From Bacillota bacterium (GTDB lineage: Bacteria > Bacillota > Clostridia > Christensenellales > Pumilibacteraceae): 34,471 nt of DNA. Within the stretch, counting starts at the first letter, position 1, and the number at the start of each line of letters is the position of its first letter. The translations under genes were made by a program, and so were the position numbers. Below the pieces are notes generated by a model. The model saw only the letters and a list, made by a program, of their open reading frames with translations, was not told where the DNA came from and did no database searches. The stretch spans positions 1 through 34,471 of the forward strand of contig WRGC01000018.1 of NCBI GenBank assembly GCA_009787385.1. The letters run 5' to 3'. Positions 5,301 through 34,471 of the stretch are shown piece by piece.

Positions 5301-5816
5301 GGAGTACAAATCAACTTTAGCAATCTATATGTTGAAAGCAATATGACAATATACGCTCATTGGAGTTGGGAGAATACTGTAACGGGCAACAATGTGTTGG
5401 TGCGTACGGCAGAAGTTAAGGTTGATAAAAATGAGCAAACTTGGGGTGAAAGTGATCCATATGATACAGTTTATATCAAAGACTTAGGTTTTAACAAAGT
5501 AGAGATGTTGAATTTGGGATACAAGACTATGCAAGTCTCTATGACTATAGATGTAAAAGAGATAGATGACGGATATCAATATGTCAACTTATACAGGACA
5601 AATATAGCTAGTTCTGCACCATACGAACAAATAAGATTTGAACATGGTAGAAATTATATTGACAAAAATTATAGAGAGTATACATTCAACTTTAGAGCAA
5701 GATCATTAAATGACTTTGAAGACAATTCATTTGTGATTAGGTATGGTTCTAGTGGGTCGTTGAATGATGATTGGCTTCACAAAAATTTGAGAGTGAGAGT
5801 GACATTCTCAAGATAA
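2381..5816 (+). CDS. MACPF-domain lipoprotein with InlB-type repeats, frameshifted near 2631
   Basis: A secreted lipoprotein: residues 1-34 are a signal peptide ending in the lipobox LVAC. A MACPF (perforin-like) domain follows, marked by KYGTHFITGVDMGGRL near 3265-3315. Bases about 4120-5370 encode five InlB/Flg_new-type repeats (for example ITFDAGDGSFG, VVFDTNGGDSGNF, each ending in an aromatic-rich W strand). The last 140 residues look like a beta sandwich. MACPF proteins form pores, and bacterial members include toxins against related bacteria; activity here is inferred. The start is GTG at 2381 after AGGAG. The first frame stops at 2662; the rest is read from a frame open since before 2586. 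A lost GT at about 2631 would restore DMDSVEYPVDGTSF and a 1145-residue protein. This may be a true pseudogene or a sequencing error. Confidence 0.8.
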
Positions 5817-9057: not shown

Positions 9058-9082
9058 GACTTGTGTTTATTTGTAGTAGTTT

Positions 9083-9709
9083 ATGGAAGAAATTAATGTA
9101 AAAGATGTTTGTACCGAATTGACTATTGCTTTTCGGACACTCAATGAGTTGTTGTTTCAAAATAAACTTGTAGAACCTAGAATAGTGACACAACCTAGAA
9201 AACGACCAAATGTGAATGGGTGGCTAACAGTAGATAAGCCGTGGGTTAATACAGATACTGGAAAAGCTTATTATGAAATAACAATATCTTCTCAAAGTTT
9301 TAATGAGTCTATCAATGATGTTTTGGGGATACTTGTGCATGAGATGGTACATCTTTCTAATGCTATGGAAGGTATTGTAGATTGTGCTAGAAATCAGTAT
9401 CATAATATTGCATTCAAGGAGGCCGCTGAAGCAGCGTTGTTGATATGTGAGAAGATACCTCATTATGGATATATGTTTACTCAACCATCCGAAAGACTTA
9501 TAAAAATATTTGATTTGTTGCCAATCCATGATGATGTATTTCATCTAGAATATAGAAATACTGTAGTTAAGTCCAAAACAATGCAATACAAAATGAATTG
9601 TTATGTATGTGATAAATGTGGTATAAAGTTTAAAACAAGAGCCAATTTAGCTTTAGATGCAAAATGTGGAGATTGCAACGGCTCTATCAATAAGTGTAAT
9701 AAAGAATAA
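9083..9709 (+). CDS. SprT-like zinc metalloprotease with C-terminal zinc ribbon
   Basis: A 208-residue protein. Residues 15-50 (LNELLFQNKLVEPRIV, RKRPNVNGWLTV) and HEMVH at 86-90, followed by QYHN at 105-108, match the SprT-like/SprT-related minigluzincin pattern: two His of HExxH plus a downstream His in YHN as the third zinc ligand. Residues 176-198 form a zinc ribbon (CDKC, CGDC). The SprT and Spartan families include proteases acting on DNA-protein crosslinks; phage and mobile-element versions of this type are common, with unknown substrates. The start has no evident ribosome binding site, and 25 bases separate it from the previous gene. The whole unit ends at the terminator at 9792-9823, so it is probably the last gene of the 6263 transcript. 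Confidence 0.8.
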   Translation: MEEINVKDVCTELTIAFRTLNELLFQNKLVEPRIVTQPRKRPNVNGWLTVDKPWVNTDTGKAYYEITISSQSFNESINDVLGILVHEMVHLSNAMEGIVDCARNQYHNIAFKEAAEAALLICEKIPHYGYMFTQPSERLIKIFDLLPIHDDVFHLEYRNTVVKSKTMQYKMNCYVCDKCGIKFKTRANLALDAKCGDCNGSINKCNKE

Positions 9710-11009: not shown

Positions 11010-12032
11010 ATGAAAACTATAGATTTTGATTATCATTTACCGACACAGTTAATTGCCCAAAATCCTACGGATAAGAGAGAAAATAGTAGGCTTATGGTTG
11101 TAGACAGACATACTAAGGAGATATATCACAAGCATTTTTATGATATATTGGACTACTTGAATGCGGGAGATGTTTTGGTTGTCAACAACACTAGGGTCTT
11201 GCCCGCAAAATTGATTGGTATTTTGGACAATAGTAAAGAGTTGGAGATATTGTTGCACAAAAGACTTGATAGTGACGAATGGGAAATATTGGTAAAAAAT
11301 TCTAAACGCTATAAAGTAGGTACACAACTTGTATTTGGTGACAATCTAAAGGGTGTATTTTGTGAAAGAGTTAGTAATGGCAATAGAGTGCTTAAATTAG
11401 AATACAATGGTATCTTAGAAGAAGTATTGTCACAAATAGGGCAGATGCCTTTACCTCATTATATCAAATCCGTATTGCAAGATAAAGAGCGTTATCAAAC
11501 GGTATACTCAAAAGGCAATGCTAAAAGTGTAGCTGCTCCCACAGCTGGCTTGCACTTTAGCTCTGAGATAATAGATAAGTTGAAATCTAAGGGGATAGAA
11601 TGGTTGGAAGTTAGTTTGAATGTGGGATTGGGTACTTTTAGACCTGTCAAGACTGAAGATTTGGCATTGCACAATATGCATGCAGAATATTTTGTATTGA
11701 GTGAAGAAACAGCCAATGCTATTAATTTAGCAAAATCTCAAGGGCGTAGGATAATCGCTGTAGGTACAACTAGTGTGAGAGTGCTTGAAAGTGCAAGTAC
11801 TCAAGATGGGAAATTGATTGCACAAAGCAATGATACTCAAATATTCATATATCCACCATACAAATTTAAAGTCGTAGATGGACTTATAACCAATTTCCAT
11901 TTGCCCAAAAGCACGCTTATCATGTTGGTATCCGCATTTATGGGACATGCTCAAACAATGCATGCATATGATTTGGCGGTGAAAAATAATTATAGATTTT
12001 TTAGTTTTGGCGATGGAATGATGATATTATAA
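11010..12032 (+). CDS. queA: S-adenosylmethionine:tRNA ribosyltransferase-isomerase QueA
   Basis: A 340-residue enzyme of queuosine synthesis; it transfers and isomerises the ribosyl part of SAM onto preQ1 at tRNA position 34. Family features: MKTIDFDYHLPTQLIAQNP at the N-terminus, SRLMVVDR, VLVVNNTRVLPA, AAPTAGLHF, GLGTFRPV and the C-terminal NFHLPKSTLIMLVSAF. An upstream in-frame ATG at 10938 would add 24 residues unlike any QueA, and it lies inside the promoter repeat, so ATG 11010 is chosen. The length is normal. It works with tgt, which follows after 281 bases. The leader appears very short and without a ribosome binding site. Confidence 0.96.
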   Translation: MKTIDFDYHLPTQLIAQNPTDKRENSRLMVVDRHTKEIYHKHFYDILDYLNAGDVLVVNNTRVLPAKLIGILDNSKELEILLHKRLDSDEWEILVKNSKRYKVGTQLVFGDNLKGVFCERVSNGNRVLKLEYNGILEEVLSQIGQMPLPHYIKSVLQDKERYQTVYSKGNAKSVAAPTAGLHFSSEIIDKLKSKGIEWLEVSLNVGLGTFRPVKTEDLALHNMHAEYFVLSEETANAINLAKSQGRRIIAVGTTSVRVLESASTQDGKLIAQSNDTQIFIYPPYKFKVVDGLITNFHLPKSTLIMLVSAFMGHAQTMHAYDLAVKNNYRFFSFGDGMMIL

Positions 12033-22047: not shown

Positions 22048-22980
22048 GTGAATATTGAGCAATCAGCTTATCATGTTCCTATAATGTTGAATGAAGTAAT
22101 TCAGTTGTTGTGCAAAACTCAAAGTGGATTGTTTTTTGATGGGACTCTTGGTGGTGGTGGGCATACTAGGGCTATATTGGATTACAGTATGCAAAACTTT
22201 GTTGTTGCTACTGATAGGGATGAAGATGCAATTGTGCATGCTAGTGAGTTGCTCAATAGTAGCAATGGGCGTCTTAAGATATTTCAATCCAATTTTAAAG
22301 ATATAGAACATGTATTAAATTTGGAAGGTATAGATAAGTTGGACGGAGCATTGCTTGACTTGGGTATTTCTAGCCATCAGATTGATAGTGCTGAGAGAGG
22401 TTTTAGTTATAGGTTTGAAGCTAGACTTGATATGCGTATGGATAGAAATCAAGAATTGAATGCTCATACTATAGTCAATTCGTATTCGGTGCAACAGATT
22501 ACAGATATTTTGAGAATATATGGAGAAGAAAAGTTTGCATTCAAAATTGCAAATAAGATAGAAAAAGTTAGACAAAGTATGCCTATAGATACTACAATTC
22601 AACTTGTAGATATTATAAGGCAGTGTATCCCTTATCACAAGAGTAATGGACACCCTGCAAAAAAGACTTTTCAAGCTTTGCGTATATATATCAATACTGA
22701 GTTACAAGGTTTGGATAAAGCTATTTTAGATATTGTAGCTAGGTTGAATAAGGGAGCTATATTTTGTGTTATCACCTTTCATTCATTAGAAGATAGAATA
22801 ATAAAAAATGTATTTAAGCAACTGTCTATAGGATGTACATGTGATAAACGAATTCCTGTGTGCGTGTGTGGCAATCAACCTACTGTGTCTGTTGTAAGCA
22901 AGATAATTCCATCAAAAGATGAATGTATTGCTAATAAGCGAGCCAAAAGTGCTATATTGCGGAGTTGTATCAAGTTGTAG
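22048..22980 (+). CDS. rsmH: 16S rRNA (cytosine-1402 N4)-methyltransferase RsmH
   Basis: A 310-residue SAM-dependent enzyme methylating C1402 in the ribosomal decoding centre. Features: HVPIMLNEVIQLL at the N-terminus, the SAM-binding DGTLGGGGHTRAIL, GALLDLGISSHQID, RGFSYRFEARLDMRMD, GHPAKKTFQALRIYIN and FHSLEDRIIKNVF. It uses GTG as the start; the upstream DNA has no ribosome binding site, and the promoter places +1 at the GTG. In most Firmicutes rsmH opens the dcw cell-division cluster between mraZ and ftsL. Here neither mraZ nor pbpB is present, so the cluster is broken up. Confidence 0.96.
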   Translation: MNIEQSAYHVPIMLNEVIQLLCKTQSGLFFDGTLGGGGHTRAILDYSMQNFVVATDRDEDAIVHASELLNSSNGRLKIFQSNFKDIEHVLNLEGIDKLDGALLDLGISSHQIDSAERGFSYRFEARLDMRMDRNQELNAHTIVNSYSVQQITDILRIYGEEKFAFKIANKIEKVRQSMPIDTTIQLVDIIRQCIPYHKSNGHPAKKTFQALRIYINTELQGLDKAILDIVARLNKGAIFCVITFHSLEDRIIKNVFKQLSIGCTCDKRIPVCVCGNQPTVSVVSKIIPSKDECIANKRAKSAILRSCIKL

Positions 22981-23050
22981 ATTTGTAATTAAAATAAAAT
23001 TAATATGCATCAGTATTGGTGTTACATTTGTAATTTAATAGTTTATAGTA

Positions 23051-23821
23051 ATGATAAAAATAAAAAGAAAAAGAGACAATAGCAATCTCATTCAAAACTC
23101 AAAAATATTTGAGATTCATGAACTAGATAATAATATTGATAGGTCTGCACTTCTTCAAGAACAATCAAGAGAATCGGCTGTAGAGATTATAAATTCTAGT
23201 TTATTGCCAAATTTTGATAGCAATTCTCAAGTGTCTACAAATTTTGAGACTTCACATCGTTTTGATGTAGAACAACAACAGTATATTAATGTAGATAATG
23301 GATACTTTGTTAATGTTGAAAACCAAATTATCAACACCAATCATACAGAGTCAATAGATTTTGATGAGTATACCCATGCTCAAGCTTCACAAAATATTGA
23401 TGAGCAAATTGTTGATATATCATTGGGTGATGGATTGGAAGAAAAAGTTTTGGAATATAATACTAGTGATGTTTCTAATGATTTTGATACCATATTAGAT
23501 AGTGATATAGTTGTTGAATCACTTTCAAACAACAATAAAGAAAATATTCAATCTGATATCACTAAAGTTATAGATGAGAATATAGACAAAAAACTTGTTG
23601 TAAAAGCATCAATAGATATTAATAATAGTATAAAAAAACATAAGTCTACAATAAAATTAATTGCATTTATTGTAGCTATAGTGGCAATAATTGCAATTGT
23701 AATTGCTGTAGGTCTTTATTTTATAGATAATTCTCAAACAAATTCTGCAATATCAACTATTGATAACATTCTAAGATATGATAGTTTGATAGCAAGAAAT
23801 TGTGACTTACAAATTTTTTGA
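23051..23821 (+). CDS. Bitopic membrane protein in the FtsL position, function unknown
   Basis: A 256-residue protein I do not recognise. Residues 1-10 are basic. Residues 11-190 are acidic, Asn/Asp/Ser-rich and probably disordered. Residues about 201-225 form a single membrane helix (IKLIAFIVAIVAIIAIVIAV), followed by about 31 residues outside. The topology is N-in. It sits directly after rsmH, where ftsL would be found in a dcw cluster, but FtsL is about 100-120 residues with a long extracellular coiled coil after the helix, and here only 31 residues follow, so FtsL is not supported. No ribosome binding site precedes ATG 23051, and the stop is TGA. A terminator lies at 23849-23879. Confidence 0.6.
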   Translation: MIKIKRKRDNSNLIQNSKIFEIHELDNNIDRSALLQEQSRESAVEIINSSLLPNFDSNSQVSTNFETSHRFDVEQQQYINVDNGYFVNVENQIINTNHTESIDFDEYTHAQASQNIDEQIVDISLGDGLEEKVLEYNTSDVSNDFDTILDSDIVVESLSNNNKENIQSDITKVIDENIDKKLVVKASIDINNSIKKHKSTIKLIAFIVAIVAIIAIVIAVGLYFIDNSQTNSAISTIDNILRYDSLIARNCDLQIF

Positions 23822-23848
23822 AAAATCATTAATAATTTATTGTTTTAG

Positions 23849-23879
23849 ACTCACTATGGAAATGTATAGTGAGTTTTTT
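23849..23879 (+). terminator. Terminator after the bitopic membrane protein gene
   Basis: ACTCACTAT (23849-23857) pairs with ATAGTGAGT (23866-23874) and runs into a six-T tract. Confidence 0.75.
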
Positions 23880-24050
23880 GTTTGATGTTATTTGTATAAT
23901 AATAGATTATTTTATTCAACTTCATGAAAGCTATGTTATGATTTAGATTTAATATTGTAGTCAAATTATTTTAAAAAGAATTGTAAGTTGTCAAACTTTT
24001 AAATTATCAAATTTTATGTCAAATAATACATTGTATTCATAAAATGTATT

Positions 24051-25130
24051 ATGAATAGTGTTAGTATATGTCTTATTGTAAAGAATGAAGAAAAAGTTTT
24101 GGCAAGGTGTCTAAATAGCCTTGGTGATTTAGCTGATGAGTTGGTCGTTGTTGATACTGGTTCTAGTGATAGTACTGTAGAAATTGCAAAACTCTATACT
24201 GATAAAGTATACAACTTTGAGTGGCAAGATGATTTTGCAAAAGCTCGCAATTTTGCCTTTGATAAGGCTACAAAAAATTATATAATGTGGTTGGATGCTG
24301 ATGATGTAATTGCTGATGATGATAGAAAAAAGTTGAATAATTTAAAAAAAGAATTAAACCAAGATATTGATATGGTTGTATGTCGTTATAATTTGTTGTT
24401 TGATGAGAAAAAAAATGTTACATTTTATTCTACTAGAGAACGGATTTTTAGGCGAAATTATGGTTATAAGTGGTGTGGTGTTGTACATGAAGTTATACCT
24501 ATAGAAGGTAAAGTTTTGTACCGTGACGATATTGCAATCAACCATATGACAGAACACAAAGATTATAAACAGTCAAACCAAAGAAATATCGCTATTTATG
24601 AAAAAACAATTAAACAACAAAAAGAATTAGATTCTAGAACTATATTTTATTATGCTAGGGAATTGCATGATGGAGGTAGATACATAGAATCAGTACATTA
24701 TTTAAATATGTTTTTGGATAGAGATGATGGTTGGGTTGAAGATAAAATAAATGCTTGCATGTTGCTTGCAAAAATATATAGGGACAAATTTTGTGACAAT
24801 AGCAATGCAATTAGATATGCTTTAAAAACAATGAGTTATAGTGTATTGAGAGTAGAGACTTGTTGCTTTTTGGGATATTTATATAAAAACAATAAGGACT
24901 TTTTGCAAGCAGTTGACTGGTTTGATTTGGCATTGCATTTGCCTAAAAAAAACGAAAAAGGTTTTGTTAATATGGATTATTATGAATACATACCTAATAT
25001 AGAGCTTTCTGTATGTTTTGACAAATTGGGTAATAGAGATTTGGCAAAATTTTACAATGAAAAAGCCGGAGTAATCAAACCATATTCTACAGCATATTTG
25101 CATAACAAAAAATATTTTGATAGTATATGA
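24051..25130 (+). CDS. Family 2 glycosyltransferase with helical-repeat C-terminus
   Basis: A 359-residue cytoplasmic enzyme. Residues 1-110 are a GT-A fold glycosyltransferase family 2 domain: SICLIVKNEEKVLARCLNSL, ELVVVDTGSSDSTVEIA, the DXD-type LDADD (82-86) and RIFRR. The C-terminal half (about 190-350) has paired helices resembling TPR units (FYYARELHDGGRYIESVHYL, LLAKIYRDK, CFLGYLYKNNKDFLQAVDWF). This domain order occurs in SunS-like and related transferases; donor and acceptor are unknown. It could modify surface proteins, but no substrate is adjacent. No ribosome binding site is seen. TAAAAT (24040-24045) lies five bases before the ATG and might make it leaderless. The stop is TGA. 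Confidence 0.85.
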   Translation: MNSVSICLIVKNEEKVLARCLNSLGDLADELVVVDTGSSDSTVEIAKLYTDKVYNFEWQDDFAKARNFAFDKATKNYIMWLDADDVIADDDRKKLNNLKKELNQDIDMVVCRYNLLFDEKKNVTFYSTRERIFRRNYGYKWCGVVHEVIPIEGKVLYRDDIAINHMTEHKDYKQSNQRNIAIYEKTIKQQKELDSRTIFYYARELHDGGRYIESVHYLNMFLDRDDGWVEDKINACMLLAKIYRDKFCDNSNAIRYALKTMSYSVLRVETCCFLGYLYKNNKDFLQAVDWFDLALHLPKKNEKGFVNMDYYEYIPNIELSVCFDKLGNRDLAKFYNEKAGVIKPYSTAYLHNKKYFDSI

Positions 25131-25414
25131 ATATCGTGCTTTTGTTTATTATTGTTAATTGTGAAGTAAAAATTAGCGATTGGTATAATTAAGTTTGCTT
25201 TGATTTATTTCCTCATAATGTAGATATTGACTAGTCAAATTCTATACTATGATGATTTTTATTGAAAAAGTTTTTGCAACTACAAATTATTGTTAGGATT
25301 TTAATTAAGGTAAATCATAGTCTTGTATATACATCAGTGAAAATAAAGTTATCAAAATATTTTGTATAACCAATATAGTAATATAATATATAGTTTACTA
25401 CATTTGTCAATTTC
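25131..25414 (+). other. Gene-free interval before the restriction-modification locus
   Basis: About 280 AT-rich bases with no supportable reading frame, RNA gene or terminator. Confidence 0.5.
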
Positions 25415-25443
25415 TAGACTACTTGTGTGTTTTGTGCTATAAT
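25415..25443 (+). promoter_or_regulatory. Promoter of the restriction-modification operon
   Basis: TAGACT (25415-25420), a 17-base spacer and extended -10 TGcTATAAT (hexamer 25438-25443). Predicted +1 is near 25450, inside a dyad at 25445-25465. Confidence 0.65.
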
Positions 25444-25444
25444 T

Positions 25445-25465
25445 AAATAAAGAAAATCTTTATTT
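25445..25465 (+). promoter_or_regulatory. Dyad at the transcription start of the restriction-modification operon
   Basis: Perfect arms AAATAAAGA and TCTTTATTT are separated by three A. The dyad begins two bases after the -10 hexamer and ends directly before GGGGA (25466-25470), the ribosome binding site. It could be an operator or an RNA hairpin limiting translation; no regulator gene is adjacent. Confidence 0.5.
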
Positions 25466-25476
25466 GGGGATATAGT

Positions 25477-28400
25477 ATGCCATCAATAATTGACAATAAA
25501 AACAAAACAATGCTAGCTTCGTTAAAAAACTCATTATCACAAGCAGAAAGAATAGATATACTTACTGCTTTTTTTTACTTTTCTGGATTTGATGCTTTGA
25601 TGGAAGAACTGAAAGATAAGTATATTAGAATTTTGGTAGGCAAGACAATTGACCCCACAAGAGTGTCGGATTTAGGTAGTATTTTGCAAGATGGACAAAA
25701 TGTAGATTTGGCAAGTTTTGCAAATGCTAAGATGTATAAACTAAATAATACGCAGAAGAAAGAGCAATACATTGATAGTTTTGTAGAACTTTTTAACAAT
25801 TCTGCACTTAGCAACCAGTTTGATGAAACTAATAGTCAAAAATTCTTTAAGATTTTTGTGGACAAAATACAAGATGGAACATTGCAAATTAGGTTCACTA
25901 ATGATACAAACCATGCCAAAGCTTTTATACTTACCAACAAACCAGAACATTCTTGTTTTGGAGATAGCAAAGGAGTTGTATTTACAGGTTCTTCAAATTT
26001 TACTTATAATGGACTTATAGGACAAGGAGAGTTGAATGAAAGATTTAGTGACAATACAAAATATGACGAATATAATGAGCATTTTGAAGGTCTTTGGAAT
26101 AACAGTAAAGCTGTAAATATAGCAACAAAAGACAACCATCAAGATTTTGTTAAACAGTTGAAAGAAAGACTTTGGATATATGCCACACCTACGCCTTATG
26201 ATGTCTATGTTAGGGTGTTAGCCGAACAGTATAGTTATTTGGACAACATAAAAATAGAAACACCAAATCAAATTACTAGTGGAAAATTTGACAATTATAA
26301 GTATCAATTGGATGCTATACAGTTGGGGCTAGATTGTATAGACAAAAATAACGGTGTCATTGTTGCCGATGTCGTAGGGCTTGGAAAATCTATTATTGCT
26401 AGTGCTATAGCAAGGAATTTGAATTATAACAAAAATATAGTTATAGCACCACCGCATTTGAAGGAACAATGGGAAGAGTACAAAGGTGAGTTTGGAATTA
26501 GGGGGGCAGTTGTAGCAAGTAGTGGAAATCTTGAAAACTTGTACAACACATATATAAATGATGATAGTCCAATACTTTATATTATTGATGAGGCTCATAG
26601 ATACCGCAATGAGCTTTCTAGTAGTTATCAATGGTTGCACCAGTTGACGAGATCTAATCCAAACAACAAAGTTATACTATTGACAGCAACGCCATACAAC
26701 AATAGACCGCAAGACCTTTTTGCACTTATCAAATTATTTCAAACACCTAGTCGTTCTACAATAACTTGTGTTGACAATCTTGGTATAAGATTTAGAGAAC
26801 TTATAGCAAATTATAATGTGCTAGAAAAAGATGGCAAAAAAAATATGACTCCACAAATAAAATCTAAGCTGGAAAGGTTGAGTGAGCAATTGAGAGTTCT
26901 AATTGACCCTGTTATTATTAGGCGTAGTCGTATTGATTTGAGTGAGATAAAAGAATATGCCGAAGATCTAGATAAACAAGGCATAAAGTTTTCTAAAGTT
27001 GTAGGTCCTGAGTTGTTGCAATATGATTTGGGAGATATACAAGAAATGTATATAAATACTCTCAAAAAGTTAAGCAATGAATTTAGTGCCGTTAGATACA
27101 ATCCAGCGTCATATTTGGTAGACCCTAAGGCGTTTAATGACAAATATGGACATTTCTTTGAAGATGCTGATATTACGCATTTTCAACGCAATCTAGCACA
27201 ATTTATAAAAAGGTTGTTAGTCATGCGTTTTGAAAGTAGCAAGTCTGCATTTAGAACAACGCTAGATAATATAATTCATTCATATCATAATATAAAAGAA
27301 TGGTGGGCAAAAGGGTTTGTTCCTATTTTAAAGAGAGGACACTTGCCAGATTTTGATTTAGATGAAGTACAAGAAATATTGAATGAAATCAATGATATAG
27401 AGCCTGATTTTGACAAATCAAAACTTCAAAACAAACCGTTGCCTATTCCAGCAAGTTTTTTTAGAGAAGATTTTATCAAAGAAGTGGAGCATGATATCAA
27501 ACTTCTAGAAAGTATAAGGGATAAGTGGTTTGTTGGTAGTAGTTTGGGATATGATCCAAAATTTGAAAGAGTAAAAGAAAAAGTTGAACAACTGTTAAAT
27601 CAAGACAAAACAAAAAAGATTGTAATATTTTCTAGTTATGCCGATACTGCAATATATGTAAAAAACCAACTTGAAGAAAATAGGTTTAGAGTTCTTTTGT
27701 ATACTGGCAGTTCGGACAAAGTAGATAGAAATATAGTTAGGCAAAATTTTGATGCGTCGTATAAAGATACTCAAAAAGATGAATATGATATCATTGTAGC
27801 TACAGATGCTTTGAGTGAGGGCTTTAATCTAAATAGAGCAGGCATTATAATCAATTATGACATACCATACAACCCTACAAGAGTTGTTCAACGAATAGGG
27901 CGAATAAATCGTATCAACAAAAAGATGTTTGATGAGATTGCTATATTCAATTTGTTCCCGTCAGAAATTGGAGAACAAGTGACACTAATTAAAGGTATAT
28001 CTCAACTAAAAATGTTGCTTATCAACAACATTGTAGGCAGTGATACAAGGACATTGTCGCCTGATGAAACTCTTGAAAGCTATTTTAGAAAGCAAATTGA
28101 TGATATAGACAATAGTTCGTCTGAAAAAGCATGGGATAACGAATTTAAGAACGAATGGAATGACATAAAGCATAATGCAGAACAACTTAAAAAATCATAT
28201 GCACTACCTATTAGGTCTCGTCTATTGCGCAAAAATTGTAAAGAAGAATTGGCTATTGCATTTGCAAAAAGGGGGAATCACTCTATTTTTGCAAGGTGTA
28301 TAGGCAACAATGAACAAGTAGAGTTGAGTTCGCCCGAGAGTGTTTTGAAATATTTTAAAGCACATTATCAAGAACAAAGTTATGCAACAGACCAAAGCTT

Positions 28401-28758
28401 GGATCAAAAATTTATAGCTTTGCGTGACGAAATAACAAAGCCTTATCCCAAAATAAAGCTAGATAAAAGAAAGGGTGACAGTATAAAAAAACTTGATAAA
28501 TTATTAGAGCTATACCCACAAGAGAGTGATTATATACAAGACCTTTTGGAAATTATCAAAACATATGATGATTTGAGCGATGGTGAATTAAAATTTTTAG
28601 CTAATATAAAAATTAAAAAAGATAACCTACGAGAGATTTTGGATGAGATAAAACAAACAATACCAAATAGTTATATCAACAACATTAGAGAAAAGGTACA
28701 AAGCATAGATAGTCAAACTGAGATTATTATGTTTACCGAAGATTTACGAATGAATTAA
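25477..28758 (+). CDS. Restriction protein: PLD nuclease fused to SF2/SNF2-type helicase
   Basis: A 1093-residue protein. The N-terminal phospholipase D-like domain has HAK (146-148) and GSSNFT (171-176), one PLD active-site motif; dimerisation usually completes the site. The helicase follows: Walker A VADVVGLGKSI (296-306), motif II DEAH (371-374), motif III LLTATPYNN (about 400), then the C-terminal helicase lobe with DALSEGFN and VVQRIGRINRIN. The layout fits ATP-driven restriction enzymes that cut DNA after translocation. The methyltransferase gene starts 12 bases downstream, so the pair is an operon. Sequence specificity is expected to come from the methyltransferase TRD, as in Type IIG, ISP and Pgl-like systems; this is inference. 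A GGGGA ribosome binding site is present. Confidence 0.9.
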   Translation: MPSIIDNKNKTMLASLKNSLSQAERIDILTAFFYFSGFDALMEELKDKYIRILVGKTIDPTRVSDLGSILQDGQNVDLASFANAKMYKLNNTQKKEQYIDSFVELFNNSALSNQFDETNSQKFFKIFVDKIQDGTLQIRFTNDTNHAKAFILTNKPEHSCFGDSKGVVFTGSSNFTYNGLIGQGELNERFSDNTKYDEYNEHFEGLWNNSKAVNIATKDNHQDFVKQLKERLWIYATPTPYDVYVRVLAEQYSYLDNIKIETPNQITSGKFDNYKYQLDAIQLGLDCIDKNNGVIVADVVGLGKSIIASAIARNLNYNKNIVIAPPHLKEQWEEYKGEFGIRGAVVASSGNLENLYNTYINDDSPILYIIDEAHRYRNELSSSYQWLHQLTRSNPNNKVILLTATPYNNRPQDLFALIKLFQTPSRSTITCVDNLGIRFRELIANYNVLEKDGKKNMTPQIKSKLERLSEQLRVLIDPVIIRRSRIDLSEIKEYAEDLDKQGIKFSKVVGPELLQYDLGDIQEMYINTLKKLSNEFSAVRYNPASYLVDPKAFNDKYGHFFEDADITHFQRNLAQFIKRLLVMRFESSKSAFRTTLDNIIHSYHNIKEWWAKGFVPILKRGHLPDFDLDEVQEILNEINDIEPDFDKSKLQNKPLPIPASFFREDFIKEVEHDIKLLESIRDKWFVGSSLGYDPKFERVKEKVEQLLNQDKTKKIVIFSSYADTAIYVKNQLEENRFRVLLYTGSSDKVDRNIVRQNFDASYKDTQKDEYDIIVATDALSEGFNLNRAGIIINYDIPYNPTRVVQRIGRINRINKKMFDEIAIFNLFPSEIGEQVTLIKGISQLKMLLINNIVGSDTRTLSPDETLESYFRKQIDDIDNSSSEKAWDNEFKNEWNDIKHNAEQLKKSYALPIRSRLLRKNCKEELAIAFAKRGNHSIFARCIGNNEQVELSSPESVLKYFKAHYQEQSYATDQSLDQKFIALRDEITKPYPKIKLDKRKGDSIKKLDKLLELYPQESDYIQDLLEIIKTYDDLSDGELKFLANIKIKKDNLREILDEIKQTIPNSYINNIREKVQSIDSQTEIIMFTEDLRMN

Positions 28759-28770
28759 GGGACAAGTTAT

Positions 28771-31437
28771 ATGATACCTATAAATGATAGCAAAGATATA
28801 TTAGCTTTTGAGTACCATAGAGACAATTTTTTGACTTTGGTTGAAAACCTATTAGCTAGTTTTAACAAAGAATTACACCCTATAAAATTTGATAGCAAAG
28901 TGTTTGATACTGTAGTTGAGTTGGGGCAATGTAAAATTTGCAAAGTAACTATTTATGAAATAATTTTAAAAGAAGGTATACAAAATCGCCGTGTTGAGCT
29001 TACTCAAAATGCTTTTAGAATGTTGAGAGAACAAGGTGTAAACAACGCTTTGGTATCTATTGTAAGTAGTGATAGACAAACTTATCGCATATCTCTACTG
29101 ACTTCTCATTACGAATTTGACGCTAATAATAAAATAATTAAAGTTTGTTCAAATCCTAGAAGATATAGTTATGCTCTTGGTATGGGTGCAAAAACTAAGA
29201 CTGCTTATAGGTTTTTGATAGAGCAAGGCAAGGTTGATAATTTAGATGACTTGATAAAAAGATTTAGTATAGAGATAGTTAATAAAGAATTCTATGATAA
29301 AGTATCAAGAGAATTTCATAGTCTAGTTGATACTAAACTAACAATACAAAGGGTTGAAGATAAAGTCAAACTAAGTGAATTTGCTGTAAGACTAATTGGA
29401 CGCATAGTGTTTTGTTGGTTTTTGAAAGAGAAAAAGAGTAAAGATTCAATATCACTTGTCCCTGATTATTTGTTGTCATTGCAAGCTATTGAAGATAACC
29501 AAAACTATTATCACAGTATTTTAGAGCTTATATTTTTTGAAAGTCTAAACAAAGATAGGTATGATAAGTTTAGACAAGGTTGTTATAAAGACATACCTTA
29601 TTTAAATGGTGGGTTGTTTAGTCCACACAACGATGATTATTATAAATATAATAACGGCACTCAGTGCGGAGGCTTGGATAAGATACAAATTGACAATGGT
29701 TGGTTTTGTGATTTTTATAGAGTATTAAATGATTATCATTTTACAGTAGATGAAAATACAAATTATGATATAGAATTGTCTATTGACCCAGAAATGTTGG
29801 GAAGGATATTTGAAAACCTTTTAGCAGAGATAAATCCACAAACGGGTGAGAGTGCAAGAAAAGAAACTGGAAGTTTTTATACTCCAAGAGAGATTGTTGA
29901 TTATATGGTTGACAGTTGTATTTTGCAATATCTTTCTACTAATACGGGATTAAATCAATCATTGTTGGATAGTTTGTTAGATTATAGTGTAGAATTAAAT
30001 GACAACGCTTGGACAAGCCAAGATAGAAAAAAGGTAGTAAACTGTTTGTATAACCTCACAATACTTGACCCCGCTTGTGGAAGCGGGGCATTTCCTATTG
30101 GAGCATTGCAAAAAATAACATATATATTGCAGAAAATAGATCCTAAATGTGATTTGTGGTTTGACAAAATGTGTGAGAATGTCCCACAGTATATAAAAAA
30201 AGAGTTCCAAAAGAAGTTTGAAGATGGTAGTTTTGACTATTTGAGAAAGCTCTGCATAATAGAAAAGACAATGTATGGCATAGACTTGCAAACCATAGCT
30301 GTAGAAATATCAAGGCTTAGATGTTTTTTGTCACTTATTATAGAAGAAAAAGTAGATGATTCAAAGCCTAATAGAGGGGTCAATCCTTTGCCCAACTTAG
30401 ATTTCAAGTTTGTAGCTTGCAACTCATTATTGAGATTGCCTGATGATAATATACAAAATTCATTATTTGAAGATGTAGGCCATATCCAATGTTTGAAAAA
30501 AATTAGAGAAGAGTATTTTAATATTGAAAGCAACAAACGAGATAAGATAATAATTAAATTTCAAAGTTTGCAAAATGACATGTTGCATAGGACGGGCAAT
30601 ATTATGGGTTCGTCAAAAGCATCAAATAGGTATCAGGCTTTAGCCACATGGAAACCTTTTGAAAATGTGTCAACTGACTGGTTTGATAGCCAACTTATGT
30701 TTGGCGTTAAAGAGTTTGATATAGTTATTGCAAACCCGCCATATGTTCACTTAGAAAAAATGAAAGACACTAAGTGGTTGCAATCAATTAAGAAAAACTT
30801 TGATGAAGAGTTGAATAAATCAACCAAACAAGGATACAAACCTAACCTACTATACTCAACATACAATGCAAGGGGTGACCTTTATGGATTGTTTTATGAG
30901 AGAGGTGTGCAACTGCTTAAGCAAGGTGGTTTGTTGTGTTATATAACTAGCAATAAGTGGCTTAAAGCAGGATATGGACAAAGTTTGAGAGATTATTTTT
31001 TAAACAATACTGATCCGCAAGTTTTGATAGATTTAGGGGCAGGTAGATTTGGTAGTGCCACAGTAGACACAAATATTCTAACACTTACAAAACAACAAAA
31101 TACCAACAATTTGCAAGCAGTATTGTACAGTGATACTAATCTCAAAAATATAAAAGATTATGTACAAAAAAATAAAGTACAAGTATCACAAGAGAACGGC
31201 AAACCATGGCTAATACTTAGTGATATAGAAAAATCTATAAAATATAAGATAGAAAAAATTGGTACACCATTAGGTGAATGGGATATAAGAATAAACTATG
31301 GAATAAAAACAGGTTGCAACGAAGCCTTTATTATTACAAAAGAAAAAAGACAAGAAATATTGGATAACTGTAAGACAGATGATGAAAAAGAAGAACTGAC
31401 GAGCTTATACGACCAATTTTGCGTGGCAAGGACATAA
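28771..31437 (+). CDS. Eco57I-type adenine methyltransferase, separated from its TRD by a frameshift
   Basis: 888 residues as read. An N-terminal helical region is followed by IPYLNGGLFSP (275-285), GSFYTPREIVDYMV (367-380), motif I DPACGSGAF (433-441) and motif IV NPPY (655-658), the marks of an Eco57I/N6-adenine methyltransferase. The start of a TaqI-type C-terminal domain (GEWDIRINYGIKTGCNEAF) is present. The frame then reads into a stop at 31435 (SLYDQFCVART) while the conserved IRPILRGKDIKK lies in another frame. One added A in the A5 tract 31385-31389 restores DEKRRTDELIRPILRGKD and joins the TRD at 31428-32042 into a 1090-residue protein. AAGGGA precedes the start. As sequenced it should lack target recognition. 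Confidence 0.88.
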   Translation: MIPINDSKDILAFEYHRDNFLTLVENLLASFNKELHPIKFDSKVFDTVVELGQCKICKVTIYEIILKEGIQNRRVELTQNAFRMLREQGVNNALVSIVSSDRQTYRISLLTSHYEFDANNKIIKVCSNPRRYSYALGMGAKTKTAYRFLIEQGKVDNLDDLIKRFSIEIVNKEFYDKVSREFHSLVDTKLTIQRVEDKVKLSEFAVRLIGRIVFCWFLKEKKSKDSISLVPDYLLSLQAIEDNQNYYHSILELIFFESLNKDRYDKFRQGCYKDIPYLNGGLFSPHNDDYYKYNNGTQCGGLDKIQIDNGWFCDFYRVLNDYHFTVDENTNYDIELSIDPEMLGRIFENLLAEINPQTGESARKETGSFYTPREIVDYMVDSCILQYLSTNTGLNQSLLDSLLDYSVELNDNAWTSQDRKKVVNCLYNLTILDPACGSGAFPIGALQKITYILQKIDPKCDLWFDKMCENVPQYIKKEFQKKFEDGSFDYLRKLCIIEKTMYGIDLQTIAVEISRLRCFLSLIIEEKVDDSKPNRGVNPLPNLDFKFVACNSLLRLPDDNIQNSLFEDVGHIQCLKKIREEYFNIESNKRDKIIIKFQSLQNDMLHRTGNIMGSSKASNRYQALATWKPFENVSTDWFDSQLMFGVKEFDIVIANPPYVHLEKMKDTKWLQSIKKNFDEELNKSTKQGYKPNLLYSTYNARGDLYGLFYERGVQLLKQGGLLCYITSNKWLKAGYGQSLRDYFLNNTDPQVLIDLGAGRFGSATVDTNILTLTKQQNTNNLQAVLYSDTNLKNIKDYVQKNKVQVSQENGKPWLILSDIEKSIKYKIEKIGTPLGEWDIRINYGIKTGCNEAFIITKEKRQEILDNCKTDDEKEELTSLYDQFCVART
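31385..31389 (+). other. A5 tract at the methyltransferase frameshift
   Basis: Five A in GATGAAAAAGAAG. Six A would give codons for DEKRRTDELIRP, continuous with the TRD. The run is short for slippage, so a mutation or sequencing indel is also possible. Confidence 0.5.
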
Positions 31438-31445
31438 AGAAAGGA
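31405..31445 (+). repeat. Outer inverted repeat, left copy (inversion site)
   Basis: A 41-base sequence, including TTATACGACCAATTTTGCGT, whose reverse complement recurs at 32569-32608. The first 22 bases are identical. The copies differ by an extra C at 31427 (absent on the right) and C versus T at 31433. It encodes IRPILRGKDIKKG at the junction between methyltransferase and TRD. Confidence 0.92.
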
Positions 31446-32042
31446 ACATATCAATATAAAGACTTACACATTATTGCCTATTTCCCAGTTAAGAAATACA
31501 ATATAGAGGATTATCCAGCAGTAGATAATTATTTGCAACAGGCAAAATGGAGCAATAAAGTACCAGACGGATTTGGCAAACTAATGCTAGAGCAATCTGG
31601 AAAAAGTCATATAGTTGAAGGGATTAAATTTAAATCAAGAAAATTCACCCACAACAAATGGTTTGAAGTGCAAGATAGCATAAGTTATTGGGACGATTTT
31701 AATAAGCAAAAAATTGTTTATAGTGAGATAGTTCAAACACCACAATTTTACTTGGATAAAGACAATAAATTTATGGTGGATGCTACAGCTTATATAATGG
31801 TTGGTAATAAAATTGAATACTTAATTGATTGGCTAAATTCCAAAACTATGGGTTGGGCATTTAAAAGATGGTACACAGTAAATTTGGGTGACAAAGGTTT
31901 TAGATATCAAAAACAATTCATTCAAAAACTCCCCATACCATTACCAAAAAATGATAAAACTAATTTTAGTGAAAGTGATATTCATCAAATTTTATCACTA
32001 ACAGAAGAAGAAATAAACTTTATTCAAAATACTTTACAATAA
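31419..32042 (+). CDS. Active-position target-recognition domain (TRD-A) of the methyltransferase
   Basis: The frame opens at a TTG (31419) in the inverted repeat, but is best read as the C-terminal part of the methyltransferase. After the conserved LRGKDIKKG come TaqI-type specificity-domain features (DLHIIAYFPVKKYNI, SYWDDFNKQKIVYSE, IPLPKNDKT) ending SLTEEEINFIQNTLQ. About 204 residues belong to the invertible segment. The domain aligns with TRD-B on the opposite strand: both share KDIKKG at the start, DDFNKQKIVYSE in the middle and a final SL(T/N)..E..FI helix. A separate TRD protein made from TTG is unlikely because no ribosome binding site is present. It overlaps the TRD-B tail by 23 bases. 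Confidence 0.85.
   Translation: MRGKDIKKGTYQYKDLHIIAYFPVKKYNIEDYPAVDNYLQQAKWSNKVPDGFGKLMLEQSGKSHIVEGIKFKSRKFTHNKWFEVQDSISYWDDFNKQKIVYSEIVQTPQFYLDKDNKFMVDATAYIMVGNKIEYLIDWLNSKTMGWAFKRWYTVNLGDKGFRYQKQFIQKLPIPLPKNDKTNFSESDIHQILSLTEEEINFIQNTLQ
31691..31728 (+). repeat. Inner inverted repeat, left copy
   Basis: A 38-base block beginning GGACGATTTTAATAAGC whose exact reverse complement is at 32334-32371. It encodes DDFNKQKIVYSE in TRD-A and the same residues in the same frame in TRD-B. Identity includes synonymous positions although the flanking TRD sequence has diverged. Confidence 0.9.
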
Positions 32043-32586
32043 ATTCTTTTTCCTTATCATTTAAGCTATACAATTCAAAAACATTGTTAAAATTTTTTAA
32101 TCCTTGTTTAGCTAATGGAAATTTTATTACACTTTCTTTGGTTAGTGAAATGCCACTATCTCCTAATAATGGACTAATTAAATTCATATAAAAACTAAAT
32201 ACACTACTAGATAAAACTTTGTAAATATACTCAATGTCTATATTATAATTATTAGCTACTAATATAAAACAAGTTTTGTCAGTGCAATAACTGTTGCTAT
32301 CCAAAGCTATCTTGGTATTTTTTTGATTGTTGGTCTCACTATAAACAATTTTTTGCTTATTAAAATCGTCCATATAAGCACAACTACGCAAGTTGTATGG
32401 TGTGTATCCTTTGTTAGTCCTTTTATTTATTGTATCCCAAAAACAATCCAAATGGTTTTTAATTGAGAGATATTCATTTTTAATATCAATTCTATCTATC
32501 AATTTATTGTCTTGGTCATAGTATCCATCATGTGTAGCTATGAGATATATGTTGGCAAATTTTATATCTCCTTTCTTTATATCCTT
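32020..32586 (-). CDS. Silent alternative target-recognition domain (TRD-B)
   Basis: A minus-strand reading frame (about 188 residues inside the inversion boundary; the open frame continues to 32694 but only by running into the recombinase gene). It starts at the right inverted repeat with WKDIKKGDIKFANIYLIATH, then YMDDFNKQKIVYSET, and ends with SVIKFPLAKQGL and SLNDKEKEFIVKYFE. It is a TaqI-type specificity domain homologous to TRD-A but diverged. It has no own start signal or promoter, as expected of a silent cassette. If the outer repeats recombine in 31428-31445, the methyltransferase flank (which keeps the C at 31427) would read LRGKDIKKGDIKFA in frame, so the truncated-looking frame would become functional. 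Confidence 0.85.
   Translation of the reverse strand, partial: KDIKKGDIKFANIYLIATHDGYYDQDNKLIDRIDIKNEYLSIKNHLDCFWDTINKRTNKGYTPYNLRSCAYMDDFNKQKIVYSETNNQKNTKIALDSNSYCTDKTCFILVANNYNIDIEYIYKVLSSSVFSFYMNLISPLLGDSGISLTKESVIKFPLAKQGLKNFNNVFELYSLNDKEKEFIVKYFE
32334..32371 (-). repeat. Inner inverted repeat, right copy
   Basis: Perfect 38-base reverse complement of 31691-31728, within TRD-B at the matching place. Confidence 0.9.
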
Positions 32587-32608
32587 CCACGCAAAATTGG
32601 TCGTATAA
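32569..32608 (-). repeat. Outer inverted repeat, right copy (inversion site)
   Basis: A 40-base reverse-strand match to 31405-31445, lacking one C. The recombinase start codon lies 32 bases beyond its outer edge. Confidence 0.92.
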
Positions 32609-32609
32609 T
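32604..32609 (+). promoter_or_regulatory. Possible -10 of the recombinase at the repeat edge
   Basis: A perfect TATAAT lies at the outer edge of the right repeat, 31 bases before the ATG. No good -35 is seen; if one exists it lies inside the repeat or the invertible DNA, so expression might depend on orientation. AAAGGAG (32629-32635) is the ribosome binding site. Confidence 0.4.
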
Positions 32610-32640
32610 AACGACAATTTTTAAAAGTAAAGGAGATAAA

Positions 32641-33243
32641 ATGATATACGGATATATAAGAGTAAGTAGTGACAAACAAACAGTTGACAATCAAAGGTTT
32701 GAAATTGATAAATTTGCCCTAGATAATAATATAAAAATTGATGATTGGATAGAAGAAACTTCATCAGGTAGCAAAGATTGGAATAAACGACAATTGGGTG
32801 AATTGTTAAAAAAAGTTGAAAAAGATGATATAATAGTATGTAGTGAGTTGTCTAGGTTGGGTAGGTCTTTGTTCATGATTATGGACATACTAAATTTTTG
32901 TTTGTCAAAGCAATGTCATATTTGGACAATAAAAGATAATTATAGACTAGGTGATGATATTACAAGCAAGGTTCTAGCATTTGCTTTTGGATTGTCAGCA
33001 GAGATAGAAAGAAAGCTAATATCACAAAGAACAAAAGAAGCTCTTCTTAGAAAAAAATTAGATGGCAAAGTTTTGGGTAGACCAAAAGGTAGTAAAACAA
33101 ATCTATTAAAAACTAAGTGTTATCAACAAAAAGATAAAATAATTAAATTAAGACAAAAAGGATTGTCTTATAGTAAAATTGCAAGAAAGGTTAAAATTAG
33201 TAGAAATATCATATCAAAATTTTTTAAAACAGTTAAGGTATAG
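32641..33243 (+). CDS. Hin/Pin-type serine recombinase (DNA invertase)
   Basis: A 200-residue small serine recombinase. The N-terminal catalytic domain begins MIYGYIRVSSDKQTVDNQ with catalytic Ser 9, and ELSRLGRSL holds two of the conserved Arg residues. The E helix region (GLSAEIERKLISQRTKEAL) is followed by a C-terminal helix-turn-helix (KGLSYSKIARKVKISRNIISK). The length and domain order match Hin-type invertases. The ATG at 32641 is chosen because AAAGGAG lies before it and MIYGYIRVS is the family N-terminus; the longer frame from 32512 crosses the inverted repeat. It sits beside the right repeat and is the obvious enzyme for flipping the TRD cassette. Its own core site and any enhancer are not identified. 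Confidence 0.92.
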   Translation: MIYGYIRVSSDKQTVDNQRFEIDKFALDNNIKIDDWIEETSSGSKDWNKRQLGELLKKVEKDDIIVCSELSRLGRSLFMIMDILNFCLSKQCHIWTIKDNYRLGDDITSKVLAFAFGLSAEIERKLISQRTKEALLRKKLDGKVLGRPKGSKTNLLKTKCYQQKDKIIKLRQKGLSYSKIARKVKISRNIISKFFKTVKV

Positions 33244-33557: not shown

Positions 33558-34471
33558 ATGACAAATAATTTTGATAATGGTGTTGAATGGATTGATAATA
33601 GGTATGGAATTAGTAGATTTTCAAATTGTGTAAATAATGACAGTTCAAAATTAGATTGCAATAATGTATGCAATAGTTGCAATTTTTCTAGTTGTAGTTG
33701 TGGACCAACAGGACCTACAGGGCCAATGGGTCCAGCTGGTCCTAGAGGTTGTGATGGTATAATAGGACCAGTAGGACCTGCTGGTCAAAGGGGAGCTACT
33801 GGAGCTACAGGTCCAATGGGTCCTATAGGACAAAGAGGAGTTACAGGTCCCACTGGAGCAATGGGACCTGCTGGACCAAGGGGTAGTACTGGGGCAACAG
33901 GTGCTACTGGAGCTACAGGGATTGGACTTCAAGGTATCCCGGGACCAACAGGAGCTACAGGACCACAAGGTATACAGGGATTGCAAGGACTTCAAGGACC
34001 AATAGGAGCTACAGGTCCTGCAGGAATTCAAGGTATACCTGGTATCCCGGGACCAACAGGAGCTATTGGACCTCAAGGAATTCAGGGATTGCAAGGTCTT
34101 CAAGGACCAATAGGTGTTACAGGACCACAAGGCATTCAAGGACCGACGGGAGCAGATGGAGTAACAGGACCAACAGGACCGACGGGAGCAGACGGAGTAA
34201 CAGGACCGACAGGACCGACTGGGGCAGATGGAGTAACGGGACCAACAGGACCAACAGGGACAGACGGAGCAACAGGCCCAACAGGACCGACTGGAGCAGA
34301 TGGAGCAACAGGTCCAACAGGCCCAACAGGACCGACGGGAGCAGACGGAGCAACGGGACCAACAGGACCGACAGGACCGACTGGAGCAGATGGAGCAACA
34401 GGTCCAACAGGCCCAACAGGACCGACGGGAGCAGACGGAGCAACGGGACCAACAGGACCGACAGGACCGAC
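33558..34471 (+). CDS. Collagen-like Gly-X-Y repeat protein, 3' end outside the window
   Basis: A partial protein, at least 304 residues, open to the window edge. Residues 1-48 are a short N-terminal region with six Cys ([18 protein letters not shown]) and no signal peptide. From residue 49 (33702) an uninterrupted run of Gly-X-Y triplets follows: [13 protein letters not shown], then a GLQGIPGPT section, then [12 protein letters not shown] units. Such proteins form trimeric triple helices; Firmicutes examples include BclA of exosporium, but the location here is not known. AAGGAG (33547-33552) gives the ribosome binding site at ATG 33558. The GC-rich sequence is unlike its AT-rich neighbours, a consequence of Gly/Pro/Ala codons. 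The tail units (34140 on) are nearly identical and may vary in number. Confidence 0.88.
34140..34471 (+). repeat. Near-identical tandem repeats in the collagen region
   Basis: GADG(V/A)TGPTGPT units of 36 or 45 bases recur to the window edge with a high level of DNA identity. Length changes and assembly collapse are both possible here. Confidence 0.85.

What the first reader, a model, noticed from the sequence alone, without database searches (positions are those of the whole stretch)
31405..32608. Invertible target-recognition cassette in an Eco57I-type restriction-modification system
Seen: two homologous TaqI-type TRD frames lie tail-to-tail on opposite strands between inverted repeats of 41 and 40 bases, and a Hin-type recombinase gene begins 32 bases outside the right repeat. 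The upstream methyltransferase frame leads into the left repeat at the conserved IRPILRGKDIKK. Known: site-specific inversion changes specificity in Type I HsdS loci and in some BREX pglX loci. Inference: here inversion swaps the TRD, and so changes both methylation and restriction by the PLD-helicase. This combination (PLD-helicase, Eco57I methyltransferase and serine invertase) looks like a poorly described arrangement.
Basis: partly seen in the sequence, partly recalled or inferred. Interest (0 to 1): 0.93.

Follow-up and report, generated by a model that had tools for sequence, protein, structure and literature searches.

The report
Invertible half-domain shuffler in restriction system
A bacterial DNA-methylation (restriction) gene ends in two interchangeable target-reading domains that lie head-on between inverted repeats beside an invertase gene; relatives carry the swapped and half-swapped forms, so the cell likely flips the cassette to change which DNA it marks, although both joins in this particular genome read one or two bases out of frame.

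Summary
As assembled, however, neither TRD is in frame with the methyltransferase in either orientation.

Relatives support inversion. In eight other loci both orientations read in frame. Two Lactococcus plasmids carry the TRD N-halves in opposite orientations. In a Prevotella-type protein set, a near-identical methyltransferase carries either the forward or the opposite-strand TRD of one sequenced locus, and the two TRDs' N- and C-halves occur in all four combinations (12, 16, 13, 11 proteins), breaking at the inner repeat. So the cassette probably yields four recognition variants.

This would account for unassigned motifs published for P. intermedia 17F (GGNYAG, CCNYAG, GGYGAB), which look like {GG,CC} x {NYAG,YGAB}, three of four.

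Invertible Type I hsdS is well known; inversion of Type II systems was, as I recall, predicted in 2023. The half-domain scheme is the new part. That the invertase does the work, and acts at the inner repeat, is inferred.

The parts
25477..28758 (+). PLD-domain plus SNF2/SF2 helicase (1093 aa), presumed restriction (cleaving) partner
   Evidence: Pfam PLDc_2, SNF2-rel_dom, Helicase_C; PADLOC 'HKD+Snf2' E 6.5e-40 over residues 1-867
28771..31437 (+). Eco57I-type N6-adenine methyltransferase ORF (888 aa); homology to relatives runs to about 31385, the last codons are out of frame
   Evidence: Pfam Eco57I 9.4e-33; listed relatives 55% and less apart from P0001; frames
31386..31400 (+). Place where the methyltransferase frame and the TRD-A frame part company (one base short relative to L099)
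   Evidence: frame translation; sequences
31405..31445 (+). Outer inverted repeat, left copy; likely recombinase site TTATACGACCAATTTTGC, codes (L)IRPILRG in the TRD-A frame
   Evidence: consensus over 25 arms
31386..32042 (+). TRD-A frame (TaqI_C type; N-half of the FP..QDSISYW class)
   Evidence: Pfam TaqI_C 1.2e-8
31691..31728 (+). Inner inverted repeat, left copy (38 bp perfect; codes DDFNKQKIVYSE), border of TRD N-half and C-half
   Evidence: 44 nt at 95%; same codons on both strands
32334..32371 (-). Inner inverted repeat, right copy
32020..32607 (-). TRD-B frame on the opposite strand (N-half of the THDG..YNLRSCAY class)
   Evidence: Pfam TaqI_C 9.6e-9; homologous to TRD-A E 3e-12
32569..32608 (-). 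Outer inverted repeat, right copy, one base shorter than the left copy
32641..33243 (+). Mpi-family serine recombinase (DNA invertase), 200 aa
   Evidence: NF009949 304.9 bits, cut-off 272; only match in the draft genome at E<=0.001

Best explanation
This locus is a restriction-modification system whose methyltransferase gene ends in a two-domain cassette with two nested pairs of inverted repeats beside an Mpi-family serine invertase gene; the invertase would likely flip the cassette, exchanging whole target-recognition domains at the outer pair, while exchange at the inner pair likely swaps their C-terminal halves, so that one locus is predicted to make up to four DNA-recognition variants. 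Shown directly: the anatomy; the same anatomy in other phyla; opposite orientation of the TRD N-halves in two Lactococcus plasmids; and all four half-domain combinations on a near-identical methyltransferase in a Prevotella-type protein set. Inferred: that this recombinase does the inversion, that it (rather than homologous recombination) acts at the inner repeats, that each half reads part of the methylation motif, and that the PLD-helicase cuts unmodified DNA. In this assembly both joins are out of frame (TRD-A by one base, inverted TRD-B by two), so here the system is either switched off, decaying, or carries sequence errors at two places.
For: Same architecture (serine recombinase plus opposite-strand TRD next to the methyltransferase) in 6 of 80 genome loci and 2 of 12 viral-contig loci, and in 3 of 40 loci from the order of genome G400. 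All 10 relatives' recombinases tested pass the Mpi-family cut-off (the window's own). In silico inversion leaves a long in-frame fusion in both orientations in 6 of 9 loci tested (the other three are the window, the degenerate L022, and L100 with an N), and also in L159 and L030, which has another TRD type. The site T[TA]AT[AT][CA]GACC[ACG]ATT lies at the methyltransferase/TRD junction in 8 of 12 loci with a recombinase and 0 of 82 without, among 94 loci with at least 1800 nt downstream (Fisher p 4e-9). That test is not clean: the pattern was written after seeing the recombinase loci, a few loci are in the set twice (e.g. L042/L043, L052/L095), and many of the 82 have other TRD types. Lactococcus: pUCCL629A 8766-9261 equals JM1 plasmid 8094-7599 in inverse order at 99.2% (locus coordinates), while methyltransferase and recombinase are collinear at 91-93%. 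Prevotella-type set (120 proteins listed; the three with an organism name are Prevotella): 11 full-length proteins carry the TRD that is forward in L099 and 11 carry the TRD on its opposite strand; in the pair P0126/P0125 the 919 residues compared before the tail are identical. Half-domains: F-F 12, F-R 16, R-F 13, R-R 11 among 101 usable of 120 proteins, methyltransferase core 96-100% identical to P0123. In the set found with the window's methyltransferase: three combinations at a 100% identical core (P0023/24/25) and four at cores 92.6-100% (P0020/21/27/29/37/40). The inner repeat is present at the matching place in the window and in L016, L018, L022, L034, L045, L072, L079, L099 and L159.
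Against: The window's own methyltransferase is not in frame with either TRD in either orientation. No reads and no second genome of this species with the other orientation were available. In the Lactococcus pair the exchange point maps to the outer end of about 270-bp arms, roughly 216-238 nt before the RPILRG motif, not to the motif, and the C-halves of the two plasmids gave no blastn match. No inner repeat was listed for L100 or within L124 or L125. The likeness of inner to outer sites is partly a coding effect: recombinase loci did not differ significantly from other loci (5 vs 5, p 0.11). L022 is degenerate; L126/L127 have no annotated recombinase or second TRD. L038 has the recombinase and the site but no opposite TRD; L163 and L188 have recombinase and opposite TRD but not the site at the junction.
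Confidence: 0.78

Rival explanations
1. The TRDs are exchanged by ordinary homologous recombination or gene conversion between repeats and between strains; the recombinase gene is a passenger.
For: Arms reach about 270 nt in Lactococcus, 123 nt in L099 and over 300 nt in L159, and the Lactococcus exchange point is at the outer end of the arms. Further half-domains beyond the two of one locus (3 N-half and 7 C-half clusters) need exchange between strains.
Against: In the window the perfect outer repeat is only 22 bp; in three loci (W, L034, L079) the right arm's likeness begins at or just before TTATACGACC, where the sequence upstream is no longer methyltransferase code. The junction site was found only with the recombinase: 8 of 12 vs 0 of 82 loci with enough downstream DNA (with the caveats given there). 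A locus with another TRD type (L030) has a look-alike site (ACGTCCGTTTTTTAAAG) in another reading frame.
Confidence: 0.25
2. In this genome the locus is a decayed, non-functional remnant of such a system.
For: Two separate one-base shortfalls, one before the outer repeat and one in TRD-B's copy of it, put both orientations out of frame; I noticed no other frame break by eye in the large ORFs of the window (no systematic test was run), so random sequencing error alone is less likely. R. bromii L022 shows a clearly degenerate copy.
Against: Helicase (1093 aa), methyltransferase up to the join, both TRDs and the recombinase are otherwise open, with conserved domains. The inner repeat is still 38 bp identical, codon for codon.
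Confidence: 0.4
3. Inversion works as an on/off switch rather than a change of specificity.
For: In the window the two TRDs stand in different frames relative to the methyltransferase, so at most one orientation could be productive.
Against: In seven relatives with TaqI_C-type TRDs (L016, L018, L034, L072, L079, L099, L159) both orientations give long in-frame fusions, and both fusions are found as predicted proteins in the Prevotella-type set.
Confidence: 0.1
4. A tail-to-tail duplication of the TRD that never inverts.
For: No read evidence for inversion was available for any of these genomes.
Against: Opposite orientations of the TRD N-halves in Lactococcus plasmids and the fused forms of the opposite-strand TRD in the Prevotella-type set.
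Confidence: 0.03

Closest known systems
Invertible Type I hsdS loci (e.g. S. pneumoniae, abstract starts seen in the listings)
   Same: Inverted repeats in specificity sequence, a recombinase at the locus, alternative specificity sequence stored in opposite orientation, combinatorial half-specificities (details partly recalled).
   Different: Here the specificity part is the C-terminus of a single-chain Eco57I-type methyltransferase with a PLD-helicase partner; none of the five proteins scanned is HsdS, HsdM or HsdR by Pfam, and the invertase is of the serine Mpi family rather than the tyrosine type usual there (recalled).
Gene-altering programmed inversions of Type II restriction-modification systems (Milman, Yelin, Kishony 2023, doi 10.1093/nar/gkac1166; not held; content recalled, only the title seen in reference lists)
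   Same: As recalled, predicts inversion in Type II systems and confirms representatives with long reads.
   Different: Whether the survey covers this PLD-helicase/Eco57I family, the Mpi-type invertase, the inner repeat or half-domain exchange could not be checked.
Pin17FIII / Pin17FORF9595 of Prevotella intermedia 17F (PMC5608340, passages read)
   Same: SNF2/RAD54 helicase upstream, methyltransferase 22231-25584, opposite-strand ORF 25608-26525 directly downstream; cloned methyltransferase methylates GGYGAB, two more motifs of the strain left unassigned.
Mpi of Bacteroides fragilis (PMC5903667, passages read)
   Same: Same serine-recombinase family by curated cut-off.
   Different: Mpi inverts at least thirteen regions across the genome; here the 22-bp repeat occurs only at this locus in the draft genome.

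Membership tests
Mpi-family serine DNA invertase | Passes curated NCBIfam cut-off NF009949 (272 bits) | tested here: met
   304.9 bits for the window; 316-349 bits for 10 of 10 relatives tested
Mpi-family serine DNA invertase | Inverts DNA between its sites | not testable with these tools
   needs reads or an assay
Invertible specificity cassette (inverton altering a coding sequence) | Inverted repeats flanking alternative C-termini on opposite strands, next to a recombinase | tested here: met
Invertible specificity cassette (inverton altering a coding sequence) | Both orientations give an open fusion with the invariant part | tested here: not met
   in the window both joins are out of frame; met in L016, L018, L034, L072, L079, L099, L030, L159
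Invertible specificity cassette (inverton altering a coding sequence) | Related genomes in the opposite orientation | tested here: met
   in relatives only: Lactococcus plasmids, N-half segments; Prevotella-type proteins
Type IIG restriction enzyme | Nuclease domain in the same chain as methyltransferase and TRD | tested here: inconclusive
   PADLOC IIG profiles match but no nuclease domain among Pfam hits; N-terminal 167 residues of the P0035 model barely covered by structural matches
BREX (PglX) | PglX curated cut-off (500 bits, BREX-1) | tested here: not met
   71.9 bits
DISARM (DrmD) | DrmD curated cut-off (610 bits) | tested here: not met
   151.3 bits for the helicase
Type I restriction-modification (invertible hsdS) | Separate HsdS subunit | tested here: not met
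   the TRDs match TaqI_C; PADLOC Type I specificity profiles match only TRD-B and only at E 1.5e-4 and 2.1e-4

The most novel reading that the evidence does not exclude
A nested, combinatorial inverton: one Mpi-type serine invertase acts on two pairs of sites, one at the methyltransferase/TRD border and one in the middle of the TRD, so that two stored TRDs give four enzymes from a 2x2 set of half-domains. Each half reads its own part of the motif; this would explain the orphan methylation motifs of P. intermedia 17F as {GG,CC} x {NYAG,YGAB} and predicts the fourth, CCYGAB.
Probability: 0.42. Interest if true: 0.85.

Novelty: new variant of a known kind. Interest (0 to 1): 0.66.

Why it matters
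It extends specificity switching by inversion to a two-gene PLD-helicase/Eco57I system found from Clostridia to Bacteroidota and Chloroflexi, and suggests that a single TRD is itself built of two exchangeable halves. That makes an unexplained published methylome directly testable: a fourth motif is predicted. A cell line that changes its methylation motif would change both which phages it can block and which of its own genes are marked. The natural half-domain exchanges also offer a set for working out which half reads which bases.

Tried and rejected

Rows dropped before counts: 57 of 119 proteins of the list without a recognisable motif or split point, 19 of 120 of the list. Of 65 genomes with a match I fetched DNA for 40. 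The locus sets hold some sequences twice (e.g. L042/L043, L052/L095, L070/L096, and L051/L169 from one genome).
Full report
Setting. The window is contig C18 of an unnamed draft genome of 1,567,360 bases in 49 contigs, 90.5% complete. The methyltransferase is rare in its order: 7 of 396 genomes have a match at E <= 1e-30, own genome included.

Anatomy. From left to right: a 1093-aa protein with a PLD domain and an SNF2/SF2 helicase (25477-28758); an Eco57I-type methyltransferase ORF (28771-31437); TRD-A on the same strand (to 32042); TRD-B on the opposite strand (32607-32020); and an Mpi-family serine recombinase (32641-33243). Outer inverted repeats of 41 and 40 nt lie at 31405-31445 and 32569-32608 and are perfect over 22 bp. 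The order is thus outer, N-half A, inner, C-half A, then C-half B, inner, N-half B, outer, recombinase.

Frame problem. The conserved motif ELIRPILRGKDIKK is in TRD-A's frame, not in the methyltransferase's. The two frames part company just before the outer repeat, where the window is one base shorter than the relative L099 (counted by hand). TRD-B's repeat is short by one more base. In silico, neither order gives a fusion. I noticed no other frame break by eye in the other large ORFs of the window; no systematic test was run. Sequence error, decay or a silent state cannot be told apart without reads. Of the 120 proteins listed only P0001 (782 aa, contig of 6714 bp) is of this methyltransferase, and it ends about 290 bp before the repeat.

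Relatives with the same arrangement. Homology searches gave 80 genome loci and 12 viral-contig loci (the 80 are the best of 405 relatives found). A serine recombinase stands beside the methyltransferase in 8 of 80 and 2 of 12, an opposite-strand TRD in 7 of 80 and 2 of 12, both in 6 of 80 and 2 of 12; 58 of the 80 genome loci have at least 1800 nt of downstream DNA. A further set, 40 loci out of 65 matching genomes from the order of G400 (a Prolixibacteraceae genome by the title of L051; the order is Bacteroidales, recalled), gave 3 of 40 with both. Hosts by record title include Clostridia, Ruminococcus bromii, Balneola and Chloroflexi, plus Prevotella nigrescens and Lactococcus plasmids. All 10 relatives' recombinases tested are Mpi family. 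Inverting the cassette in silico leaves long in-frame fusions both ways in L016, L018, L034, L072, L079 and L099 (6 of 9 tested; not in the window, the degenerate L022, or L100 with an N), in L159, and in L030, which carries a different TRD type.

A DNA site, not only a protein motif. Over 25 arms from 15 loci, including some without a recombinase in view, the consensus is TTAT.CGACCGATTTT.CG.GGCA. In the right arms of the window, L034 and L079 the likeness begins at or just before TTATACGACC although the sequence before it is not methyltransferase code. Among 94 loci with at least 1800 nt downstream, the site stands at the junction in 8 of 12 with a recombinase and 0 of 82 without (Fisher p 4e-9; the four without it are L022, L030, L163, L188); over all 132 loci the figures are 9 of 13 and 7 of 119, and in those seven the stored sequence ends within 700 nt of the ORF. 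The test has three weak points: the pattern was written after the recombinase loci had been seen, a few loci are in the set twice, and many loci without the site have other TRD types. L030 has a look-alike repeat (ACGTCCGTTTTTTAAAG) in a different reading frame.

Opposite orientation in relatives. Plasmids pUCCL629A (L124) and the JM1 15-kb plasmid (L125) carry helicase, methyltransferase, an opposite-strand TRD and the same invertase accession. Helicase plus methyltransferase are collinear at 93% and the recombinase end at 91%, but the segments holding the TRD N-halves are in opposite orientation: 496 nt at 99.2% and 535 nt at 85.5%. Against my reading: the exchange point lies at the outer end of the roughly 270-nt arms rather than at the motif, the C-halves gave no blastn match, and no inner repeat was listed within either plasmid. 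Two further plasmids, L126 and L127, have no annotated recombinase or second TRD.

Swapped fusions in a Prevotella-type set. L099 lies in a viral-contig record; its methyltransferase residues 600-915 find P0123 (Prevotella intermedia) at 100%, and the three of 120 listed proteins that bear an organism name are all Prevotella. Of the 120, 11 full-length ones (and one short) carry L099's forward TRD and 11 carry the TRD that L099 has on the opposite strand, on methyltransferase cores 96-100% identical; 97 carry neither as a whole. P0126 and P0125 are identical over the 919 residues compared before the tail and differ soon after the motif.

Half-domain exchange. Splitting each TRD at the inner repeat (the [ED]DF.K.K[IV] motif), 101 of the 120 proteins could be classed. 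L099's two N-halves and two C-halves occur in all four combinations: F-F 12, F-R 16, R-F 13, R-R 11. With other halves there are 3 N-half and 7 C-half clusters in 12 combinations. The set found with the window's own methyltransferase shows the same (62 of 119 proteins usable): P0023, P0024, P0025 have 100% identical cores and three combinations; P0020, P0021, P0027, P0029, P0037 and P0040 (cores 92.6-100%) show all four. This points to exchange at the inner repeat. Whether the invertase does it is open: inner sites of the window rank 4th and 5th of 28908 windows under a matrix from outer sites of other loci, but the control against loci without a recombinase was not significant. These are protein records without genomic context, so that the halves are exchanged within one locus rather than between strains is inferred.

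Link to a published methylome. In P. intermedia 17F (PMC5608340, passages read) the methyltransferase Pin17FIII at 22231-25584 is followed by the opposite-strand ORF9595 at 25608-26525, with an SNF2/RAD54 helicase upstream. The strain shows GGNYAG, CCNYAG and GGYGAB; the cloned gene gave only GGYGAB, ORF9595 alone gave nothing, and the other two motifs stayed unassigned. A half-domain scheme reads these as {GG,CC} x {NYAG,YGAB}, three of four, with CCYGAB predicted. The Rikenella microfusus motifs quoted in the same passage (CCGACY, CCRGAG, SCCAAB) do not fall into so plain a pattern.

Structure. A model of P0035 (mean pLDDT 80.9, pTM 0.72) matches CamA, BrxX/PglX, LlaGI, MmeI and M.TaqI, as expected for a single-chain N6-adenine methyltransferase with a C-terminal TRD. 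P0035's outer motif falls at residues about 877-888 and the inner one at about 962-971 (invariant positions).

Verdict. Inversion of specificity genes is a known kind of system, and I recall that Type II systems were predicted to be among them in 2023 (paper not held). I rate this a new variant of a known kind.

Noticed in passing
L121 (NZ_CP082843.1 378000-394000) 9157-12857: Prevotella nigrescens has two opposite-strand Eco57I-type fragments, separated by an ATP-binding protein, between methyltransferase and Mpi invertase; L188 6259-8609 also has two opposite-strand fragments. Possibly cassettes with three TRDs.
   Followed up: no
L030 11024-11041 / 11896-11913 and 11070-11100 / 11819-11849: Elusimicrobiaceae locus with a different TRD type but also an Mpi invertase and a cassette that reads in frame both ways; site ACGTCCGTTTTTTAAAG.
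   Followed up: partly
TRDs of window, L018, L034, L045, L072, L079, L099: The two slots of a cassette often hold the same two N-half classes, one with TF/FP(S) and one with TH(N/D)G near its start (7 of the 12 loci I compared by eye); other pairs seen are FPS with PWHFP (L016, L159, probably L022) and THNG with TAYKG (L124, L125).
   Followed up: no
loci L015-L106 and L158-L197: In 28 of 132 loci the stored sequence ends within 300 nt of the methyltransferase ORF end, as assembly breaks at an invertible region might do; part of this may come from how stretches were cut.
   Followed up: partly
window 32600-32615: Terminator-like hairpin GTCGTATAATAACGAC followed by T-rich sequence, straddling the right outer repeat and the recombinase leader; 1 found, 0.5 expected.
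   Followed up: no
window 33560-34471: Collagen-like Gly-x-y repeat protein (GPTGPTGATG) running off the window end.
   Followed up: no
window 2586-5816: 1076-aa protein with a YGTHFITG...GG stretch that recalls MACPF proteins and with repeats like Listeria-Bacteroides repeats; label from recall, no family search run.
   Followed up: no
L022 10394-10439: R. bromii YE282 copy: the methyltransferase end before the left repeat is deleted or mutated while the right arm keeps the fuller end; looks degenerate.
   Followed up: partly
L124/L125 7599-7622: The Lactococcus exchange region contains TACGACAAAAT in three of the four arms, loosely like the outer site; a second-site role was not tested.
   Followed up: no
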